Positions 1,572 to 27,218 of a DNA stretch of 36,281 nucleotides are shown here, one piece after another. Where the stretch lies: the NCBI GenBank assembly GCA_913020395.1, contig CAJWCA010000007.1, positions 1-36,281 on the forward strand, read 5' to 3'. The stretch is from an uncultured Cellvibrionales bacterium (GTDB lineage: Bacteria; Pseudomonadota; Gammaproteobacteria; Pseudomonadales; Cellvibrionaceae). The notes under the pieces are model-generated. The model was given only the letters and a program-made list of their open reading frames with translations, made no database searches and was not told the origin of the DNA. How positions within the stretch are numbered: the first letter of the stretch is position 1; the number at the start of each line of letters is the position of its first letter. A program made the position numbers and the translations under genes.

Positions 1572-2939
1572 TCATGCCTTAACTTTTTTATCCTTCACCG
1601 CCAACTGATAACGCTCTATTTTTCGATCCAATGCAGGCCTGGAAATCTTTAGAATCTCACAGGACTTTCCCTTATGGCCCGAGCAGTGGTTCAGAACAAA
1701 CTGTATGTGTCTGGCTTCCATTTCATCCAGTGAAAGGGGCGTATCCATACTAGCCTGCGTACTTTTCGCCCCTGATGGGGAGGGTAAACTCAGATGTTGC
1801 TCGTCAATTGGCGCACCACGCCCTCGAAGCAGCGCCTGCGTTAGGACGTTCTCTAATTCTCTGATATTCCCGGGCCAGGCATATTGATTAATCAGTGCCT
1901 TTGCACTTTCCGTAACGGACACGAGCGGCAAACCTTCATTGCGACAAATACGCTCCAAAAGCCCTTCTACTAACATGGGGATATCTTCTCGGCGATCGCG
2001 CAGCGGTGGCAGTGAAATTTGAATGGTGTTCAGCCGGTAGAGAAGATCTTCCCTGAAGCGCCCCTCTTTGACCTCGACGGCCAAATCGCGATTCGTAGCG
2101 GCAATCACACGCGCATTACTTTCGAGCATTTGAGTCCCACCCAGGCGTTCAAACGTGCCCTCTTGCAATACTCGCAAGAGTTTTGCCTGTAAAGGCAGGG
2201 TCATTTCACCCACTTCGTCTAGAAACAGAATGCCGTTGGCCGCTAATTCAAACTTTCCACTTTTACGGCTGTTGGCCCCTGTGAACGCGCCACGTTCGTG
2301 ACCAAACAATTCACTTTCTAACAGATTGTCTACCAGCGCGGCACAATTCAGTGCGAGAAAAACCCCGGCGCAGCGACTGTGATTATAAATAGCCCTGGCA
2401 ATCAATTCTTTGCCAGTACCACTCTCTCCTGTAATTAAGACACGAGTTTGACTCTGGGCAACCAGTGCAATGTCTTTGCTGATATTTAACATCGCTTCAC
2501 TGCGTCCTAACAGTTTGGGCAGATCATTAATGGCGGCTTTAGAGGTACTGAGTTCCTCAACCTGACGACGGAGCTGTCGATGCTCCAGTGCAATCTTTAC
2601 GGTGTGTTCAAGCTCTTCCGTTGTAATCGGTTTGTGAATAAAATCAAAGGCCCCTGCCTGAATCGCCGCAATCGCCAAGTCCAGGTCATGTTGAGCGGTC
2701 ATCATAATCACCGCCATATCCAGGCCTTCTCGCTCAAGTGACACCAGGAAATCAATGCCTCTACCATCGGGCAAGCCCTGATCAAGAACAACCAGGTCGG
2801 GCTGCTTCTCGTCAATGAGTTGGCGTGCGAGTTTGAGCGACGCGGCATGAAAAACTTCATGCCCACCCTCTTCAAAATGAAGGGTTAATATCTGTGCCAG
2901 CGCGCTGTCATCTTCAACTAAAAGAATTCGCGCTTTCAT
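1572..2939 (-). CDS. Sigma-54-dependent response regulator (NtrC family)
   Basis: A complete bacterial enhancer-binding protein of 455 residues. The N-terminal receiver domain (about 1-120) has the acidic pair D10/D11, the phospho-acceptor D53 in VVLDQGLPDG and the conserved K103. The AAA+ domain (about 143-370) carries Walker A GESGTGKE (171-178), the sigma-54 contact loop GAFTGA (217-222) and Walker B LFLDE (D241/E242). A Fis-type helix-turn-helix lies at about 412-448. All residues needed for phosphorylation, ATP hydrolysis and sigma-54 contact are present, so it should be a functional activator. Its start overlaps the kinase gene stop by 4 bases (ATGA), so the two are translationally coupled partners. 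It is the last gene of the bufferin operon. The two sigma-54 promoters and three dyads at 7119-7336 are its obvious candidate targets, which would make the operon autoregulated. The target assignment is inferred. Confidence 0.95.
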   Translation of the reverse strand: MKARILLVEDDSALAQILTLHFEEGGHEVFHAASLKLARQLIDEKQPDLVVLDQGLPDGRGIDFLVSLEREGLDMAVIMMTAQHDLDLAIAAIQAGAFDFIHKPITTEELEHTVKIALEHRQLRRQVEELSTSKAAINDLPKLLGRSEAMLNISKDIALVAQSQTRVLITGESGTGKELIARAIYNHSRCAGVFLALNCAALVDNLLESELFGHERGAFTGANSRKSGKFELAANGILFLDEVGEMTLPLQAKLLRVLQEGTFERLGGTQMLESNARVIAATNRDLAVEVKEGRFREDLLYRLNTIQISLPPLRDRREDIPMLVEGLLERICRNEGLPLVSVTESAKALINQYAWPGNIRELENVLTQALLRGRGAPIDEQHLSLPSPSGAKSTQASMDTPLSLDEMEARHIQFVLNHCSGHKGKSCEILKISRPALDRKIERYQLAVKDKKVKA

Positions 2940-4201
2940 GGCGTTACCAAAGGCAGGTGTATATCGACGGTAGTGCCATCGTTTACTTTGGACTTAATTG
3001 ACACGCTGCCCCCCTGGGACTTTTGCAAGGACTCTACAATCGCTAAACCTAAACCCGACCCGTTAGCCTTAAAGCTGACAAAGGGTTCAGTGATGATACG
3101 CAATTTATCAGATGGTATCGTATCACCAAAATTGTGAACACAAATACTGCCTGTGCTGTCATTTTTCTCCACTCGCAGGGAAATGGTGTCTTCAGGGTCT
3201 GCAGCTTCACACGCATTCCGAACGAGATTCAACATAACCTGGGTGAGCTTGTCTCTGTCAGCGGTTACCTCTACTGCGTGACTCGCCGTTAACTGCAATG
3301 TCTGACGTCGCTCACTGGCAATTGAGTCAAAGGTAGAAATAAAGTCCCGGCAGAACCCCGATAGTTCTAGCGGGCCTGCGTTAACCTCTATCGGCTTGGC
3401 ATATAACAATAACTCGTTGAGCATTCTTTCAAGCCTGGCCACCTCTCCAATGCCTAGTTCGAGCCTCTTCTCCGGATTCCTTTCCGGGTGTTTCATGATG
3501 TATTCCAGCGTCAAGCGAATGGTTGTGAGGGGATTGCGAATTTCATGGGTAATATGTGAGGCAAACTCCCCCAATGCGGCCAACTTCTCCTTGTGTGCCA
3601 ATTCTTTATGAACTTCTAACAATTGTTCAGAGCGATCCTGAACCTGCACCTCCAGTGAATCTGAGTACTCTTCCAGCTTTTGAAATAGGTCGTAATTATC
3701 GAGCGCAATGGCTATACGCTCTGCAAATAATTCCGCTGTTTGCTCTTCACGAGCAGTATACTGCCTGGCTTTCCTGTCGAAATAACACAGTGTGCCAACC
3801 ACCTCACCTCCTGGTGAGCGTAGGGGAACTCCCATATACGAACAAAAACCCTCGGGTGGAATACCATATTGCGTATTTCGAAGGGCGTCTTCAACGGTCA
3901 GTATGGTATTGGTATTCAACACATGTGTGGACAATTGCCCGTGCACATCCATGGAACCACAGGATAGGCAGTCGGTTTCAGGCTTGGTAGCCAATACTTG
4001 TTTGGTGCCGTATCGATAGAGAGTGATTGCCGATAGACCACTTCCCATTAACTCCAGCAAGGCTTCACACACACTATCCAGGTAAGACTGTAACTCGCCG
4101 GCCCTGTAACTGACCGTTGTTAGTGTCGCCAGGATTTTTTCCGCCGGGTGTAAAGAATCAGGCTCTACGGCTGTTGGTCTCTGGCTGGGTACGTCACTCA
4201 T
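2936..4201 (-). CDS. Soluble GAF-domain sensor histidine kinase
   Basis: A 421-residue kinase with no membrane segment or signal peptide, so it should sense something in the cytosol. Domains in order: a GAF domain (about 22-172), a coiled-coil linker (about 172-207), the HisKA dimerisation domain with phospho-acceptor H219 in HITHEIRNP, and a HATPase domain with N-box LNLVRNACEA and G-box GSGLGLAIV. The GAF domain contains a CxxC pair (C78, C81) with M84 and H87 close by, which could bind a soft metal such as Cu(I) or react with an electrophile; this is inference. I chose the ATG at 4201 because GGGAG sits 6 bases upstream, and the 17 extra N-terminal codons of the longer frame lie inside the preceding gene. 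It overlaps the preceding gene by 8 bases and the response regulator by 4, so it is the regulator's cognate kinase. Confidence 0.93.
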   Translation of the reverse strand: MSDVPSQRPTAVEPDSLHPAEKILATLTTVSYRAGELQSYLDSVCEALLELMGSGLSAITLYRYGTKQVLATKPETDCLSCGSMDVHGQLSTHVLNTNTILTVEDALRNTQYGIPPEGFCSYMGVPLRSPGGEVVGTLCYFDRKARQYTAREEQTAELFAERIAIALDNYDLFQKLEEYSDSLEVQVQDRSEQLLEVHKELAHKEKLAALGEFASHITHEIRNPLTTIRLTLEYIMKHPERNPEKRLELGIGEVARLERMLNELLLYAKPIEVNAGPLELSGFCRDFISTFDSIASERRQTLQLTASHAVEVTADRDKLTQVMLNLVRNACEAADPEDTISLRVEKNDSTGSICVHNFGDTIPSDKLRIITEPFVSFKANGSGLGLAIVESLQKSQGGSVSIKSKVNDGTTVDIHLPLVTP

Positions 4202-4853
4202 AGTATTCTCCCAAGGGTGTTGCGACTGCGGATTGCAACAGGCCCATGTCATTGAGGCGGCTGACCACCTTTAGCCCCTGTTCAACAAATTCCACCACGT
4301 TCTCAATATCCCAACATTCAGCAATATCCAACAGAGATTCAGTTGCCCCCAGAGCACACTGATTATCTGAGGCCATTCGCAAGGCCAACACCAGAGTATA
4401 AACAGGAGGAGGCAACTCTAGGAAGGACACTTTTCCCTTTTCTACGCTATATAACAATAAGAAGGTTAACTTTGGAGTGTTTGTATCAAGCCCTACCGCG
4501 CCATTCTGTATCGGATAGTCATAAACTTGCGGCAATGCGTGTTTTGATAATAGCAGTGGGCTGTGGGCCAGATCTGCCGACTCTAATGACGGCCCGTATC
4601 CACGCGTTCCAGCAGGTGCAGGCAACGTAGACAATCGCAATTTGCTTAATTCAAATGACACCATTACCTGACTAAAAGGCAGTACTGGGCGAACCAGATC
4701 CGTCATCGAGCAGCGCTCTAAGCGCATTGCACGAGTATTACCAGTGGCATACACCGTCTCGCCTTGCCACTGTTGACTCGCCTGAACTGACGTTAATGCT
4801 CGCCTCACATAGGTGTTTAACGACTGGAGCCCGGGTTTGTTATTCAGTTCCAT
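4194..4853 (-). CDS. Unrecognised 219-aa protein of the bufferin operon
   Basis: I cannot name a family. It has no signal peptide or membrane helices and few cysteines (C48, C166, C180), so it is probably cytosolic. The N-terminal two thirds has no motif I know, apart from a conserved-looking RCSMTDLVRPVLPF segment. Residues about 143-205 (starting SFLELPPPVYTLVLAL and ending NDMGLL) follow the same leucine pattern as the C-terminal domain of the DUF2063 protein encoded just upstream. It may therefore be a second peptide-recognition or docking partner, or an adaptor linking the biosynthetic enzymes to the kinase. It overlaps bufC by 14 bases and the kinase gene by 8, so its production is tied to both. 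There is no clear Shine-Dalgarno sequence, consistent with coupling to bufC translation. Its position between the peptide-modifying genes and the two-component genes is the best clue to function. Confidence 0.75.
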   Translation of the reverse strand: MELNNKPGLQSLNTYVRRALTSVQASQQWQGETVYATGNTRAMRLERCSMTDLVRPVLPFSQVMVSFELSKLRLSTLPAPAGTRGYGPSLESADLAHSPLLLSKHALPQVYDYPIQNGAVGLDTNTPKLTFLLLYSVEKGKVSFLELPPPVYTLVLALRMASDNQCALGATESLLDIAECWDIENVVEFVEQGLKVVSRLNDMGLLQSAVATPLGEYYE

Positions 4854-5625
4854 ACAATACGCCTATCAAACCTTGTTGCGCCCATTTCGACAGCGTGCTC
4901 ACCGCAAAAACACTGACCTCATCATGGGGGATAATTTCCAATAGCGCTTCACACACTCGGGCAAAATTTGAGCCGTGTTGAAACTCTTTAACCATACACA
5001 ATTCTGCTGCGCCCACATGTAAAAACTCGGTCATTTTCTCCCGGTTTCGCCACAACAAACACTCCTCTGTGCTCCAGCGGCTATCCGGCGGGGATTGTTC
5101 TTCTTTGATTGCCTGCCACACAGACACAACATTCCACGGGCTCTCAAAGAGTCTCACACTCGGGTGAAAATGTATTTTCATCTCTGGCCAGTTTTGAGGG
5201 GGTAACTCACCCAGTGCTTCAACGCTGACCGTGGCCGCATCGGGTGCATCAAAAACACAGAGCAGGAGACGCTCGAAACGGGCCAATTCGGCAATTTGTG
5301 GGTGTTCACTGAACGGTTTGTTATCAGCGAGAAATACCGGCAAATCATCACAAAAATGTCGCAGCGAACGATAGTGGGACGGGTAGATATTTATGTATTG
5401 CTGCACCATTTGGTCAAACAAGTCGTCACCGAGATAAACACCCGTTAAGGGGTGATCGGTATCAATAGTTTCTCTCAACCTCACCTGATAGGCGTTGCGA
5501 TAGATATGCAACCGGGTATCGACGGAGATAGCACCTTGCTGAACAATGTGGTTCGCAATCTTTTTTTCCCCCTGCAACAGGAATTCCATCATCTGCTGCT
5601 GCCTTACACACAATGGCTCTTTCAT
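4840..5625 (-). CDS. bufC: DUF2063 / BufC-HvfC-type partner of the MNIO enzyme
   Basis: A 261-residue protein with the DUF2063 N-terminal helical domain. Recognisable segments are MMEFLLQGEKKIANHI and the signature RLHIYRNAYQVRLRETI followed by HPLTGVYLGDDLF (about 11-100), then a C-terminal winged-helix-like domain (about 185-258). In characterised MNIO systems the equivalent protein (HvfC, BufC, MbnC) binds the precursor peptide and presents it to the DUF692 enzyme. The gene order precursor - DUF692 - DUF2063 here is the canonical one. Its ATG overlaps the stop of bufB (ATGA) without a strong ribosome binding site, indicating coupled translation and a likely 1:1 complex. The length is normal for the family. 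Confidence 0.9.
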   Translation of the reverse strand: MKEPLCVRQQQMMEFLLQGEKKIANHIVQQGAISVDTRLHIYRNAYQVRLRETIDTDHPLTGVYLGDDLFDQMVQQYINIYPSHYRSLRHFCDDLPVFLADNKPFSEHPQIAELARFERLLLCVFDAPDAATVSVEALGELPPQNWPEMKIHFHPSVRLFESPWNVVSVWQAIKEEQSPPDSRWSTEECLLWRNREKMTEFLHVGAAELCMVKEFQHGSNFARVCEALLEIIPHDEVSVFAVSTLSKWAQQGLIGVLYGTE

Positions 5626-6479
5626 AATACAATCTGCCGCTGACTGGATTCGGAACTATCGTTGAGTGTTTTGTACGCAATGTCTCTAGCGATATCCAGC
5701 TCAGCAAGCAGTTCGCCCAGCGGGGGAATATTGTCATCCCGCTCTATCATTGTGCTGGTTGCACCAAACCGCTTAAGGCTCTGCTCATAGAGATCCCAGA
5801 CCGGGTCGGCGATATCGTGATCGTGGGTATCGATCACATAATCACCATAATCAGAGTGCCCGGCCAGGTGAAATTGTTTGACTCGGCTTGGATCGATCGC
5901 ATTGATATAATCAAGCGGATCGAAACCATGATTGCGTGCACTCACATAGATATTGTTAATGTCTAACAGAATATTACAATCAGCTCGCTTAACAATCTCG
6001 GACATAAACTCCCACTCACTGCACTGGGAGTCAGAATATGTCAGGTAACTGGACACATTTTCCAATAGAATTTGCCGGCCCAGAAAGTCCTGAACCTGAA
6101 TAATTCTATTGGCCACATGATCAATCGCCTCCTCACTATAAGGCAGAGGCAATAAGTCGTGACTATTGACATCCCCCATGCCGGTAAAACATAAGTGATC
6201 GGACAACCAAAGCGGTTCAACTTCGTCCGCCAACTGTTTAAGAGAGGATAAATAACGTTTATCTAAAGGGTCAACGGAACCAATTGAGAGAGACACACCG
6301 TGCATAAACAGAGGATAATCCCGCCGTATCTGGTGTAGGTAGTGTTTAGGTTTTCCACCTTCGACCATAAAGTTTTCGGTCACAACCTCAAACCAATCGA
6401 CCTTGGGTTGTGTTTCAAGTACATCGACAAAGTGATCGGTTCGTAGCCCCAGACCAAATCCATAGTTTTTGTTATTCAT
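5622..6479 (-). CDS. bufB: MNIO family (DUF692) peptide-modifying iron enzyme
   Basis: A 285-residue TIM-barrel protein of the multinuclear non-heme iron oxidative enzyme family, which modifies cysteines of ribosomal peptides (for example to thiooxazole or oxazolone-thioamide groups). Visible family segments are GFGLGLR (7-13), WFEVVTENFM (29-38), HGVSLSIG (H60), SDHLCF (H95), LENVSSY (E130), LLDINNIYVS (D163, N165), HLAGHSD (H194, H198), DTHDH (H209, H211) and MIERDDNIP (E236). These cover the expected metal ligands. The ATG at 6479 with GGGGA 8 bases upstream is preferred over a TTG 15 bases further upstream. It lies 87 bases downstream of the precursor gene and overlaps bufC by 4 bases. 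The likely substrate is the adjacent Cys-rich precursor. Confidence 0.93.
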   Translation of the reverse strand: MNNKNYGFGLGLRTDHFVDVLETQPKVDWFEVVTENFMVEGGKPKHYLHQIRRDYPLFMHGVSLSIGSVDPLDKRYLSSLKQLADEVEPLWLSDHLCFTGMGDVNSHDLLPLPYSEEAIDHVANRIIQVQDFLGRQILLENVSSYLTYSDSQCSEWEFMSEIVKRADCNILLDINNIYVSARNHGFDPLDYINAIDPSRVKQFHLAGHSDYGDYVIDTHDHDIADPVWDLYEQSLKRFGATSTMIERDDNIPPLGELLAELDIARDIAYKTLNDSSESSQRQIVL

Positions 6480-6566: not shown

Positions 6567-7049
6567 TTACGCCCCGACTTTACCCGCGACATCGCCACAA
6601 GCTTTTTCTGACATAGCGACAAAACCATGACCTTTACAAGCCGCTTTACCCGCGCAGGCATTCTCCGCTGTTTTGCAATCGTTGTGCCCCTTACACTTGT
6701 TCACCCCATAACAATGAGACAACTCAGCCACGGCGACTTTGCCTTTCCAGTCATCCTGGGTTGTGCCACCAATATCCGCACAACTCTTTGACGGCATGGC
6801 GACAAAACCATGTCCTTTGCAAATCGCATGACCGGCACAGGCATTTTCAGCTGTTTTACAGTCGTTATGACCCTTACAGGTATTCACGCCGTAACAGTGC
6901 ACTAAATCGGTGGTGGCTGATGCAGCAGAAGCTCCGGCAGCCGCAGCTGCGCTTGAGGTGCTGGTGCCCGCATTTGCACAACCCATCAATCCCGCTGCAG
7001 CAAGTGCCAAAGCAGTGCCAGATAGAGTCGATTTAAATTTACGTTCCAT
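6567..7049 (-). CDS. bufA: Bufferin-type Cys-rich precursor with two tandem core units
   Basis: A 160-residue exported precursor. Residues 1-24 form a signal sequence (MERKFKST then a hydrophobic stretch) ending LMGC, which fits a lipobox. A low-complexity Ala/Ser/Thr linker follows (27-48). Then come two near-identical units, 51-95 and 112-156, each with six cysteines (C52, 58, 64, 71, 77, 90 and C113, 119, 125, 132, 138, 151) in the pattern [23 protein letters not shown]. This pattern resembles BufA2-type bufferins, copper-sequestering peptides matured by DUF692/DUF2063 enzymes, which are encoded immediately downstream. The ATG at 7049 has AAGGA 7 bases upstream; the in-frame extension to 7130 would start inside the sigma-54 promoter and is rejected. 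The usual family member has a single unit, so the duplication is notable. Metal identity is inferred from the family. Confidence 0.88.
6582..6899 (-). repeat. Internal tandem duplication within the bufferin precursor gene
   Basis: Two direct copies of a 135-bp unit (6765-6899 and 6582-6716, period 183 bp) encode the two six-cysteine cores, separated by a 16-residue linker ([16 protein letters not shown]). About 34 of 45 residues are identical. DNA similarity is also visible, for example in the stretches covering the CKGHGFVAM codons, which points to a fairly recent duplication or continuing gene conversion. Confidence 0.85.
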
Positions 7050-7378: not shown

Positions 7379-7999
7379 ATGATTGATCGGATAAACAAAT
7401 TACAAGACGTATTTAACCTTAGTCGAAAGGCCGACTTTGTCGCACCGCTGTTATTGCGAGCCTACCTTATTCCCATTTTCTGGATGGCGGGATCGCAAAA
7501 ACTTTCACACTTCAGCAACACCGTAGAATGGTTTGGAAACGCTGAGTGGGGGCTGGGTATGCCTTTCCCCTTATTGATGGCCTCACTGGCAATCGCCACC
7601 GAACTCGGTGGCGCAATCCTTTTGACTCTTGGGCTTGCGACCCGCTGGATCAGCATCCCGCTTATTTTTACCATGGCGGTCGCTGCCCTTAGTGTGCATT
7701 TGAAAAATGGCTGGTTGGCTATTGCCTCGGCAAGTGGCCCATTTGCCACCGAGCAAAGTATCGGCGCCATCGAAAGGCTTGACCGGGCTAAATCAATTTT
7801 ACAGGAACACGGGAACTATCAATGGCTGACTGAGAACGGCCCTCTGGTTGTGCTCAACAACGGGATCGAGTTTGCCGCAACCTATTTAATTATGTTGCTC
7901 GCACTGCTGTTCATGGGCGGCGGACGTTATGTGAGCGTGGACTATTGGCTGGCCCGTCGTTTTCGTCAATCACACATCACGCAAAATTTAAAAGGATAA
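7379..7999 (+). CDS. DoxX-family membrane protein
   Basis: A 206-residue integral membrane protein with the DoxX fold. An N-terminal helix contains RAYLIPIFWMAGSQKLSHF, followed by MASLAIATELGGAILLTLGLATR, a third helix IPLIFTMAVAALSVHL, a soluble loop of about 65 residues, and a C-terminal helix AATYLIMLLALLFMGGG. DoxX proteins are standard members of bufferin and related MNIO operons (BufD/HvfX/GigT), probably acting in the membrane on redox or metal handling, although their chemistry is unsettled. Here it is first in the divergent operon. The ATG at 7379 has GAGAGGA upstream at an 8-base spacing, and the longer frame from 7298 would overlap the sigma-54 promoter. The gene ends 4 bases before the next start, so it is cotranscribed. 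Confidence 0.88.
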   Translation: MIDRINKLQDVFNLSRKADFVAPLLLRAYLIPIFWMAGSQKLSHFSNTVEWFGNAEWGLGMPFPLLMASLAIATELGGAILLTLGLATRWISIPLIFTMAVAALSVHLKNGWLAIASASGPFATEQSIGAIERLDRAKSILQEHGNYQWLTENGPLVVLNNGIEFAATYLIMLLALLFMGGGRYVSVDYWLARRFRQSHITQNLKG

Positions 8000-8003
8000 G
8001 ACA

Positions 8004-9659
8004 ATGAACACAGATAAAACCGCGTTAAACGGGGCCGAGCTTTTTGTTCAGTGTCTTGAAAACGAAGGCGTAGACTACATATTTGGCATTCCAGGTGAAG
8101 AGAATATTGGCGTAATGGACGCCCTTCTCGATAGCTCGATTGAATTTGTACTGACCCGCCACGAACAGGGCGCCGCGTTCATGGCCGACGTCTATGGTCG
8201 ACTGACAGATAAGCCGGGTGTCTGCCTGGCAACCCTGGGGCCAGGCGCTACCAATCTCATCACCGGTGTGGCAGATGCCAACATGGACTTTTCCCCCGTT
8301 GTTGCAATTGCTGGACAGGGCTCGACTACCCGCTTGCACAAAGAGAGCCACCAGGTGCTCGATCTGGTTCGAATTTTTGAACCCATTTCGAAATACAGCG
8401 CACAAATTCGCAGCCCTGAAGTTATTCCGGAAATTGTGCGCAAGGCCTTTAAAGATGCCTGCAAAGAAAAACCCGGGGCCAGCTTTATCGAATTCCCTGA
8501 GAATGTTGCGGGCATGGACGCAGGCGGAATTGTTCCACTAAAACAACAGTCCCCCACCACACCGATGCCAGCGGTCAATAAAGTTCGCGAAGCCGCCGAA
8601 CTCATTAACGCCGCTAAATTCCCCATTATTATGGCGGGCAATGGCGTGATTCGAGCCGGTGCAAGCCAAGCCCTGATTCAGTTTGCGGAAATGCTCAATA
8701 TTCCAGTTGCAAGCACATTCATGGCCAAAGGGGTTATTCCGAATGCTCACCCCCTCAGCCTGGGTACGGTGGGTTTACAAGCACACGATTATGTCGGCTG
8801 TGGTTTTGATCGCGCTGATCTGGTGATCTGCGTGGGATACGACATGATCGAATATCACCCTCACCTTTGGCACAAAGATTCAAACAGCCAGATCATCCAC
8901 ATTGACTCAGTGTCTGCAGAGGTGGATAGCTATTATCAGCTGGCGACAGGTGTTTTAGGAGACATCAACGCGAGTTTGAAGGAGATTTCTAAGCTGGCAA
9001 GCGTGCACCAGGCCAATAATTTTGAATCCCTTCGCGATACACTTTCCGACGTCATGGAAGAGCATGCACACGATCAGGCTTTTCCTATTAAACCCCAAAA
9101 AATACTGTGGGACCTACGCGAAGCAATGAACAATGAAGACATCTTGATTTCGGATGTGGGCGCTCACAAAATGTGGGTTGCAAGAATGTTTCAAGCAGAA
9201 CAAGCCAATACCTGTATCGTATCCAATGGTTTTGCATCGATGGGCATTGGTGTTCCGGGGGCGATTGCCGCCAAGCTGGTACACCCCGAACGCAATGTTG
9301 TGACCGTCACCGGAGACGCCGGATTTCTCATGAACTCCCAGGAAATTGAAACGGCCATGCGTTTGAATCTGCCCGTCGTTATTTTGGTTTGGAACGACGG
9401 CGAGTACGGTTTAATCAAATGGCACCAGCAGCGAACGTTTGGCCGGGAAAGTCATATTCGTTTTAATAACCCGGACCTGGTGGCCTATGCCAAAAGTTTT
9501 GGGGCTAAAGGTTATCGCATTGAGAGTACCGAGCAATTGCTACCGACCCTGAAACAGGCCTTTGAAGACAACACGGTGGTGGTGATCGATTGTCCAGTAG
9601 ACTACCGTGAGAATATGAAACTCACGGAACAACTGGGCGAACTGGTGTGCCCGATCTAA
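8004..9659 (+). CDS. Acetolactate-synthase-like TPP enzyme, large subunit type
   Basis: A 551-residue thiamine-diphosphate enzyme of the acetolactate synthase group. It has the catalytic Glu of the N-terminal PYR domain (E54 in RHEQGAAFMADVYGR), the central domain, and the cofactor-binding GDAGF...WNDGEYG motif in the C-terminal PP domain. The reaction would be condensation of two pyruvates (or pyruvate plus another 2-oxoacid or aldehyde) with loss of CO2. No regulatory small subunit follows, which fits the stand-alone type rather than the branched-chain biosynthetic IlvBN/IlvIH holoenzyme. The ribosome binding site AAGGA overlaps the doxX stop codon, so the two are tightly coupled. The next gene is an aldehyde dehydrogenase, so its true product may be an aldehyde or ketoacid rather than acetolactate. 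The exact substrate is not visible from sequence. Confidence 0.88.
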   Translation: MNTDKTALNGAELFVQCLENEGVDYIFGIPGEENIGVMDALLDSSIEFVLTRHEQGAAFMADVYGRLTDKPGVCLATLGPGATNLITGVADANMDFSPVVAIAGQGSTTRLHKESHQVLDLVRIFEPISKYSAQIRSPEVIPEIVRKAFKDACKEKPGASFIEFPENVAGMDAGGIVPLKQQSPTTPMPAVNKVREAAELINAAKFPIIMAGNGVIRAGASQALIQFAEMLNIPVASTFMAKGVIPNAHPLSLGTVGLQAHDYVGCGFDRADLVICVGYDMIEYHPHLWHKDSNSQIIHIDSVSAEVDSYYQLATGVLGDINASLKEISKLASVHQANNFESLRDTLSDVMEEHAHDQAFPIKPQKILWDLREAMNNEDILISDVGAHKMWVARMFQAEQANTCIVSNGFASMGIGVPGAIAAKLVHPERNVVTVTGDAGFLMNSQEIETAMRLNLPVVILVWNDGEYGLIKWHQQRTFGRESHIRFNNPDLVAYAKSFGAKGYRIESTEQLLPTLKQAFEDNTVVVIDCPVDYRENMKLTEQLGELVCPI

Positions 9660-9702
9660 ACTTAAAATATCGTCATTAAACACAACGGGAAGGAATGCAA
9701 TT

Positions 9703-11103
9703 GTGACTGAATCGACAGCAACATTAACCGTAAACTCACCCTACAATGGTGAATTACTCGCTGAACTCGTACCCGCCTCTCAGGGGGATATTGAGCAGGC
9801 CCTATCGGCCGCCACGGCGCTTAATGATGAGCTTAAGGGGCCACTACCGCTGCCAACCCGAATTGACATTTTGTTAAAAGCCGCCGGCATCATGGCCTCG
9901 CAAAAAGAAGCGTTGGCCCTGCTAGCTGCCAGTGAAGGGGGTAAACCTCTCAGTGACTCACGGGTGGAACTGGAAAGAGCCATAGAGGGTCTTCACCTGT
10001 CTGTGGATAGCTTGCGGCGCGACGGCGGCCAGGTAATTCCAATGAACCTGAATAGTGCCTCCGCCGGAAAATCGGCCTTTACTCAAAAAGAACCGATTGG
10101 TGTGGTGGTGGCGGTTAGCGCGTTCAATCATCCTCTCAATCTCATTGTGCATCAGGTTGCTCCCGCCGTTGCAGTGGGGTGTCCGGTCATTGTGAAACCG
10201 GCAGATGATACTCCCCTGTCCTGCTTGCGGTTTGTAGAGATCTTACATGAGGCCGGGCTACCCAAGGCCTGGTGCCAAGCGCTGGTTGTTCCCGACCTGT
10301 CTCTCGCGGAGTCATTAGTGACTGACCCTCGAGTGGCGCTCTTTAGCTTCATAGGCAGTGCCAAAGTAGGCTGGATGCTGAGAAGCAAAGTGGCCCCGGG
10401 CACTCGCTGCTTGCTGGAGCATGGCGGCGCCGCACCTGCCATTGTCTTTGCTGACGCCGATATTCCTGCGGCGGTAAAAGCTCTGAGCAAAGGGGCTTTT
10501 TATCACGCAGGCCAGGTGTGTGTATCAGTGCAACGTATCTTCGCCCATGTCGATATCATTGACTCTCTTGCGGAACAACTCGCTTACGCCGCCAATGTCT
10601 TGGTTGTTGGTGACCCTACAAGCGAGAGCACAGAGGTCGGTCCTCTCATCCGGACAAGGGAAGTAGAGCGGGTGGATAAATGGGTACAGGAAGCTATTGG
10701 GCTCGGGGCAACAGCCTTAAGTGGCGCCCAGCCCAAGGGGACGACTCATTACCTGCCAACGGTCCTTACCCAAGTGCCAGCTCAGTGTACCTTGAGTCAA
10801 AATGAAGTATTTGGTCCTGTGGTCTGCCTTTACGCGTTTGACGATGCGGCTCAAGCCTATCAACAAGCCAATGATCTGCCTTTTGCTTTTCAGGCAGCCG
10901 TGTTCACTCAGAACCTTGAAAACATGATGTCGGCTTTCCGCGGTTTGCAGGCTTCGGCCGTCATGGTCAACGAGCACACAGCTTTCAGAACTGACTGGAT
11001 GCCCTTTGCCGGCTTGAAACAATCAGGGCTCGGTGTTGGTGGCATAGAGCACACCATGAAAGAGATGCAAATCGAGAAAATGTTGGTGCTGCCTTCGTTT
11101 TAA
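9703..11103 (+). CDS. NAD(P)-dependent aldehyde dehydrogenase
   Basis: A 466-residue enzyme of the aldehyde dehydrogenase superfamily, oxidising an aldehyde to its acid. The general base E239 (LEHGG) and catalytic C273 (GQVCVSVQRI) are both present, with the cofactor-domain segments AFNHPLNLIVHQVAPAVAVG and VIVKPADDTPLSCL and the C-terminal NEVFGPVV motif. The GTG start at 9703 is chosen because GGAAGGA lies 8 bases upstream and the nearby ATG is followed almost at once by a stop. It follows the TPP enzyme by 43 bases in the same operon. The substrate is unknown; removal of a reactive aldehyde made by, or fed into, the TPP enzyme is a reasonable inference. Confidence 0.93.
   Translation: MTESTATLTVNSPYNGELLAELVPASQGDIEQALSAATALNDELKGPLPLPTRIDILLKAAGIMASQKEALALLAASEGGKPLSDSRVELERAIEGLHLSVDSLRRDGGQVIPMNLNSASAGKSAFTQKEPIGVVVAVSAFNHPLNLIVHQVAPAVAVGCPVIVKPADDTPLSCLRFVEILHEAGLPKAWCQALVVPDLSLAESLVTDPRVALFSFIGSAKVGWMLRSKVAPGTRCLLEHGGAAPAIVFADADIPAAVKALSKGAFYHAGQVCVSVQRIFAHVDIIDSLAEQLAYAANVLVVGDPTSESTEVGPLIRTREVERVDKWVQEAIGLGATALSGAQPKGTTHYLPTVLTQVPAQCTLSQNEVFGPVVCLYAFDDAAQAYQQANDLPFAFQAAVFTQNLENMMSAFRGLQASAVMVNEHTAFRTDWMPFAGLKQSGLGVGGIEHTMKEMQIEKMLVLPSF

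Positions 11104-20787: not shown

Positions 20788-27218
<6,431 letters not shown>

What the first reader, a model, noticed from the sequence alone, without database searches (positions are those of the whole stretch)
6582..6899. Two-core bufferin precursor made by internal tandem duplication
The precursor has two nearly identical 45-residue units with six cysteines each (12 in total), joined by a short linker. A single unit is the usual form of this type. Two cores could double metal capacity or create a clamp between them, and would require the DUF692 enzyme to act on two sites in one substrate.
Basis: seen in the sequence. Interest (0 to 1): 0.65.

Follow-up and report, generated by a model that had tools for sequence, protein, structure and literature searches.

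The report
Two-core copper-binding peptide precursor (Buf2)
This bacterial gene encodes a secreted copper-scavenging peptide with two matching cysteine-rich halves; it is real, but this double form is an old, widespread and already published variety rather than a novelty.

Summary
On the minus strand, ORF 6567-7049 (160 aa) has a lipoprotein-type signal and two six-cysteine units, 36 of 46 residues identical, joined by 22 residues. It is a BufA2 bufferin precursor (NF050166, 137.5 bits against a cut-off of 60), followed by bufB and bufC.

The claim of unusualness mostly fails. PMC12452194 reports 6 conserved Cys in 90% of Buf2 precursors and 12 in the rest, and a model showing duplicated domains. 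All 80 homologous loci kept (best of 184) have two cores, as do 9 of 13 above-cut-off genomes among 145 relatives.

The duplication is old: units resemble the same-position unit of other proteins, not their sibling, in 154 of 160 cases. Maturases of two-core precursors fall together (bootstrap/SH-aLRT 90/64, below the tool's threshold for firm support).

One feature I did not meet in the passages read is the linker: 22 residues in 81 of 81, Trp in 79, and the best-predicted part of a weak AlphaFold model. That suggests one fixed two-lobed unit.

The parts
6567..7049 (-). bufA2: two-core Buf2 bufferin precursor, 160 aa
   Evidence: NF050166 E=1.2e-40, 137.5 bits vs cut-off 60, two stretches; 80 two-core homologous loci
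6978..7049 (-). signal peptide with lipobox LMGC (residues 21-24); read as a lipoprotein export signal
   Evidence: read from sequence; no signal-peptide predictor was run
6897..6977 (-). low-complexity Ala/Ser/Thr spacer before core 1 (residues 25-51)
   Evidence: AlphaFold pLDDT under 50 for residues 1-42
6780..6896 (-). core 1, C1 to C6, spacing 5-5-6-5-12
6714..6779 (-). 22-residue linker with W101 and conserved GG, G and L
   Evidence: length 22 in 81 of 81, Trp in 79 and Tyr in 2 of 81; pLDDT 84 for residues 91-100 and 91 for 101-110
6597..6713 (-). core 2, C1 to C6, same spacing
5622..6479 (-). bufB: MNIO (DUF692) maturase
   Evidence: PF05114 E=9.8e-112; NF050167 384.9 bits vs cut-off 310
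4840..5625 (-). bufC: DUF2063 + RRE-type partner protein
   Evidence: PF09836 E=3.1e-16; NF050145 48.6 bits, below its cut-off of 142
4194..4853 (-). orfD: second partner-like protein, matching only the C-terminal half of HvfC; overlaps bufC by 14 bases
   Evidence: NF050145 39 bits over profile 95-235 (below cut-off 142); PF22106 E=0.0015, below cut-off; in 1 of 80 two-core loci, the same-genus L032
7379..7999 (+). divergent DoxX / HvfX-family gene
   Evidence: NF050144 236.4 bits vs cut-off 80; PF07681
1572..4252 (-). GAF histidine kinase (2936-4252) and NtrC/AtoC-type response regulator (1572-2939), reading on from orfD; putative regulators, link inferred from overlap
   Evidence: same order in the same-genus locus L032

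Best explanation
The gene makes a two-core Buf2 bufferin. The ribosome makes a 160-residue precursor with a lipoprotein-type Sec signal. In the cytoplasm the BufB-BufC pair oxidises core cysteines to 5-thiooxazoles in both cores, one core after the other. The product is exported, probably anchored by its lipobox cysteine, and binds copper in the cell envelope under copper stress. I expect the inner four cysteines of each core (C2-C5) to be modified and C1-C6 to form a disulphide, as the first and last cysteines do in Buf1: eight rings in all. The two cores are held in fixed register by a constant-length linker, so the product behaves as one two-lobed chelator. Shown here: gene, family, both cores, neighbouring enzymes, an old origin, the conserved linker. 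Inferred from the literature: modification, export, copper binding. Inferred only: number of rings, disulphides, fixed geometry.
For: NF050166 with two matched stretches, NF050167 and the HvfX family over their cut-offs; DUF692 and DUF2063 domains. bufB hit in 79 of 80 and bufC in 78 of 80 two-core loci (in L057 only part of bufB is on the contig). Twelve core cysteines in 81 of 81, spacing 5-5-6-5-12 in 79 (unit 1) and 80 (unit 2) of 81; the exceptions are one 13-residue last spacing in each unit and one extra Cys in unit 1. Linker 22 in 81 of 81 and best-predicted region of the model. Lys is the commonest residue after C2, C3 and C5 in both units, matching the Cys-Lys substrate class of BufA2 (passages). 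[quoted passage not shown]
Against: No modification, copper binding or export was tested here. I saw no solved chemistry of a two-core bufferin in the passages I read, and PMC12452194 says the modification of Buf2 is not identified. The AlphaFold model is weak (mean pLDDT 62.8, pTM 0.54). bufC scores below the HvfC equivalog cut-off. In L075 neither bufB nor bufC was found near the precursor, so local pairing is not universal.
Confidence: 0.82

Rival explanations
1. Only one core is modified and binds copper through thiooxazoles; the other core is a plain cysteine-rich domain (structural, or a thiol store).
For: PMC12668002 (passages) reports that of two short FonA substrates the one-repeat form was not modified and the two-repeat form was, so repeats need not be handled alike.
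Against: Both cores keep all six cysteines in 81 of 81 proteins, and Cys-Lys steps dominate in both.
Confidence: 0.1
2. The two-core gene arose by fusion of two neighbouring one-core bufA genes, not by internal duplication.
For: Tandem one-core bufA genes, the first with a lipobox and the second without, stand before bufB in L163 and L164; their BufB lie beside the two-core group in the quick tree (there under the loci L133 and L141).
Against: Profiles of unit 1 and unit 2 do not assign tandem gene 1 to unit 1 and gene 2 to unit 2 (unit 1 minus unit 2: 1.5 and 1.3 bits for L163, 0.0 and 2.8 for L164), although the same profiles sort 152 of 162 of their own units (not held out). In the tandem pairs of L168 and L169 the lipobox is on the second gene. 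L165 and L166, also near the group, show one gene each.
Confidence: 0.4
3. The two cores are independent beads on a flexible tether and merely double the copper capacity.
For: Each unit matches the family model on its own over the cut-off; most of the chain is predicted with low or middling confidence.
Against: A tether would be expected to vary; this one is 22 residues in 81 of 81, with GG, G and L invariant and Trp in 79 of 81, and is predicted as an ordered strand. Further two-core proteins found by the family model also have 22, though one (L027/L174) has Ser for the third Gly.
Confidence: 0.35

Closest known systems
12-Cys Buf2 (Buf_6/12Cys) bufferins; PMC12452194 Fig. 3h models WP_010947964 (Legionella) and WP_077285100 (Cognaticolwellia aestuarii)
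   Same: Duplicated 6-Cys domains, Sec or lipoprotein signal, bufABC order; a two-core homologue from C. aestuarii is among my loci (L066, 62% identity in the best segment, query residues 1-159)
   Different: Nothing that changes the class. The legend seen does not say which of the two models is the 12-Cys one, and I did not match the accession to L066.
One-core Buf2 / BufA2 of Caulobacter vibrioides type
   Same: Same six-cysteine core, MNIO and DUF2063 partner (comparison made with one-core loci, not with the Caulobacter gene itself)
   Different: One core; no 22-residue Trp linker; the BufB of the 30 one-core rows fall outside the two-core group
Buf1 (DUF2282) bufferins
   Same: Function by analogy, thiooxazoles, bufABC
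   Different: Four conserved cysteines; different precursor family; the window protein has no Pfam match at E up to 1
Oxazolin, fontiphorin, gonophorin, bulbicupramide (captophorin class)
   Same: Several 5-thiooxazoles installed on repeats by an MNIO-PME1 pair
   Different: Short repeats such as EGKCG in place of two 46-residue cores (passages)

Membership tests
BufA2 / Buf2 bufferin precursors | Match to the curated family model above cut-off | tested here: met
   NF050166 137.5 bits vs 60; own-genome search gives both units over cut-off
BufA2 / Buf2 bufferin precursors | Six conserved Cys per domain (12 in the duplicated form) | tested here: met
BufA2 / Buf2 bufferin precursors | N-terminal Sec-type signal peptide | tested here: inconclusive
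   basic start, hydrophobic stretch and lipobox read by eye; no predictor run
BufA2 / Buf2 bufferin precursors | Gene order bufA-bufB-bufC with MNIO and DUF2063 partner | tested here: met
BufA2 / Buf2 bufferin precursors | Cysteines converted by the MNIO; copper binding | not testable with these tools
   needs expression and mass spectrometry
12-Cys two-core subgroup | Two domains in one chain, shared with other species | tested here: met
   80 of 80 homologous loci examined, linker 22 in 81 of 81 with the window
Buf1 (DUF2282) | DUF2282 domain with four conserved Cys | tested here: not met
   no Pfam family at E up to 1

The most novel reading that the evidence does not exclude
The two-core bufferins are not two beads but one composite metallophore: the constant linker strand locks the cores together and creates a copper site, or an assembly-line register for the maturase, that no one-core bufferin has. 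It arose once and took its own maturase lineage with it.
Probability: 0.2. Interest if true: 0.5.

Novelty: new member of a known kind. Interest (0 to 1): 0.17.

Why it matters
As given, it matters little: it adds a member to a published form of a copper-buffering peptide family. If the linker result holds, it changes how the 12-Cys form should be viewed: as an old lineage with a fixed two-lobed scaffold and a matching enzyme lineage, which makes the question whether the MNIO works through two cores in order directly testable with a natural substrate.

Tried and rejected
Recent internal duplication: rejected, since units group by position across proteins (154 of 160) and 24 of 46 third codon positions differ between the two units. 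Concerted evolution: only 3 of 160 units are closest to their sibling. A second partner protein (orfD) as a companion of two-core precursors: rejected, found in 1 of 80 loci, the same-genus one. Fusion of tandem genes against internal duplication: left open by the profile test. Structure search of the two-core model against the PDB: nothing at E <= 0.001. One-core AlphaFold model as comparison: pLDDT 59.9, pTM 0.38, too weak for more than the order of elements. BLASTP of bufC against orfD: no alignment of note.

Sampling and dropped rows: one search found 184 relatives and kept the best 80; its patterns were cut from the two-core query, one of them from the linker. L077 and the genome G265 are the same contig by length, and L032 and G001 likewise, so samples overlap. 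Most two-core rows came by similarity to the window protein and the one-core rows are the best-scoring matches of two family-model searches, so the tree is not an even sample. The unit comparison used 80 of 81 proteins (one has a longer unit). The AlphaFold job used 30 of the 81 two-core proteins, chosen by me.

Full report
What is there. The finding's coordinates were given without a strand. On the minus strand they read through without a stop and hold two six-cysteine units; the plus strand has stops in the frame translated. The gene is 6567-7049 (-), 160 residues, with a lipobox LMGC at residues 21-24. The units match at 36 of 46 residues and 101 of 138 bases, far beyond shuffled halves (score 222 against a maximum of 65 in 1000 shuffles). 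It matches the NCBIfam model for BufA2 bufferin metallophores at 137.5 bits against a cut-off of 60, with two matched stretches, and no Pfam family at E up to 1. Downstream on the same strand are bufB (PF05114; NF050167 over cut-off) and bufC (DUF2063; below the HvfC equivalog cut-off). A DoxX/HvfX gene lies divergently upstream.

Is two-core unusual? It is already in print. [quoted passage not shown] the family's earlier name was Buf_6/12Cys (passages). Its Fig. 3h shows models from Legionella and from Cognaticolwellia aestuarii; the legend as seen does not say which is the 12-Cys one. The C. aestuarii locus L066 came up among my two-core homologues, so I take it to be the published example, but I did not match the accession. 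A search for 'bufferin' with '12 Cys' listed nine papers, of which by title this is the only one on bufferins. The original bufferin paper was not held under the DOI I recalled, so I have not seen it.

How common among relatives? One search found 184 relatives in the GTDB genome set and kept the best 80; all 80 have two cores, but they were fetched with a two-core query. A less biased look used the family model. In 145 relatives, 13 genomes (own included) have a match over the cut-off; 9 of them have the two-core form (G000, G001, G010, G037, G054, G066, G100, G122, G143), and 4 have one-core genes only (G015, G050, G090, G117) (two-core judged from two matches in one frame, and confirmed by reading loci of all nine). 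In 370 genomes drawn from the class, 70 have a match over the cut-off, and in the listing, which is cut at its weak end, I find the two-core geometry only in G000 and G265 (G265 confirmed). So it is the usual form near the window and a minority form in the family. Below the cut-off, G132 holds a divergent double protein of another make (L015, ten cysteines, beside an MNIO-like gene).

How old? In 80 proteins with equal unit lengths, 154 of 160 units are closest to the same-position unit of another protein, 3 to their sibling and 3 to the other unit of another protein. Mean identities are less stark: 79% between the units of one protein, 78% among units 1, 75% among units 2, 74% across. The maturases tell a similar story. 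In a tree of 110 distinct BufB rows, the 80 from two-core loci lie on one side of a branch with ultrafast bootstrap 90 and SH-aLRT 64, below the tool's threshold for firm support (quick tree: SH-aLRT 93); 92% of 200 bootstrap trees need a single change. One genome, G122, carries a one-core and a two-core system with separate BufB.

Origin. In the quick tree the nearest one-core BufB rows include L133 and L141, and there two one-core bufA genes stand in tandem, the first with a lipobox and the second without. That would suit fusion of neighbours as the source of the two-core gene, and a lipobox-like motif stands in 51 of 81 two-core leaders by one pattern and 53 by another (PMC12452194 gives about 16% lipoprotein signals for Buf2 as a whole). 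But profiles of unit 1 and unit 2 do not sort the tandem genes, and in other tandem pairs the lipobox is on the second gene (L168, L169). I leave it open.

The linker. From C6 of core 1 to C1 of core 2 there are 22 residues in 81 of 81 proteins. Positions 4, 5, 13 and 20 (G, G, G, L) are invariant there, and position 11 is Trp in 79 and Tyr in 2. Eleven stretches from the family-model searches, some of them the same genes, also give 22 and Trp; one gene (L027/L174, G143) has Ser at position 13. An AlphaFold model from a 30-row alignment is poor overall (mean pLDDT 62.8, pTM 0.54), but its best block of ten is in this linker: pLDDT 87, 84 and 91 for residues 81-90, 91-100 and 101-110, with a strand at 96-106 between two copies of the same strand-helix module. 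Most of the cysteine loops are predicted poorly (blocks of 48 to 56). A one-core model shows the module once (pLDDT 59.9, pTM 0.38). I read this as a fixed two-lobed scaffold; it is an inference from conservation and a weak model, and no coordinates were inspected.

How it likely works. From the literature: MNIO-PME1 pairs install 5-thiooxazoles, and bufferins sequester copper in the periplasm (passages, and section 21 whole). [quoted passage not shown] From the sequence: Lys is the commonest residue after C2, C3 and C5 in both cores, as in the Cys-Lys substrate class of BufA2. My prediction of four rings and one disulphide per core leans on Buf1, where the first and last Cys form a disulphide. 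Multi-repeat substrates are modified at many sites in fontiphorin (seven) and Microbulbifer MmrA (six) (passages), so acting on two cores asks nothing new of such enzymes.

Surroundings. bufC is overlapped by orfD, which matches only the C-terminal half of the HvfC partner family (39 bits, below cut-off). Outside its genus the best match in 145 relatives, 35% identical over residues 88-214, lies in a 296-residue protein between an MNIO-like and a DoxX-like gene (those neighbours named by eye from their sequences). orfD, a GAF histidine kinase and an NtrC-type regulator follow in the same order in the same-genus locus L032 only (1 of 80). PMC12452194 reports sigma and anti-sigma genes in Buf1 but not Buf2 clusters, so a two-component pair here would be a local addition. 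None of this is needed for the two-core form.

Verdict. It is a new member of a known, published kind, with one detail, the constant linker, that I did not see described in the passages I read.

Noticed in passing
window 4194-4853 (-): orfD, a second partner-like protein with only the HvfC C-terminal half, overlapping bufC; full-length relatives seen only in the window and its same-genus locus L032/G001.
   Followed up: partly
window 1572-4252 (-): GAF histidine kinase and NtrC/AtoC-type regulator directly after the bufferin genes, same order in L032; possible dedicated control.
   Followed up: partly
window 7379-11103 (+): DoxX/HvfX gene followed by an acetolactate synthase and an aldehyde dehydrogenase gene; doxX and als relatives also follow bufABC in Porticoccaceae loci L046 and L068.
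   Followed up: partly
L163 1747-2313, L164 3067-4045, L168 2395-3129, L169 2772-3421: Tandem one-core bufA genes, one member of each pair with a lipobox-like motif and the other without; first gene in L163 and L164, second in L168 and L169.
   Followed up: partly
L171 2778-3164 and L169 3792-4256: One-core bufferins expanded inside the core by extra short cysteine repeats: another route to more cysteines.
   Followed up: no
L015 1204-1725 (+): Divergent double-unit precursor with ten cysteines just before an MNIO-like gene in G132, below the BufA2 cut-off: perhaps a separate doubling.
   Followed up: no
G000 contigs C21 and C30: Two further MNIO genes in the same genome, the one on C21 beside an HvfC-type partner piece.
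   Followed up: no
window 20818-27209 (-): Two adjacent, overlapping LacZ-type beta-galactosidase genes whose best family models differ.
   Followed up: no
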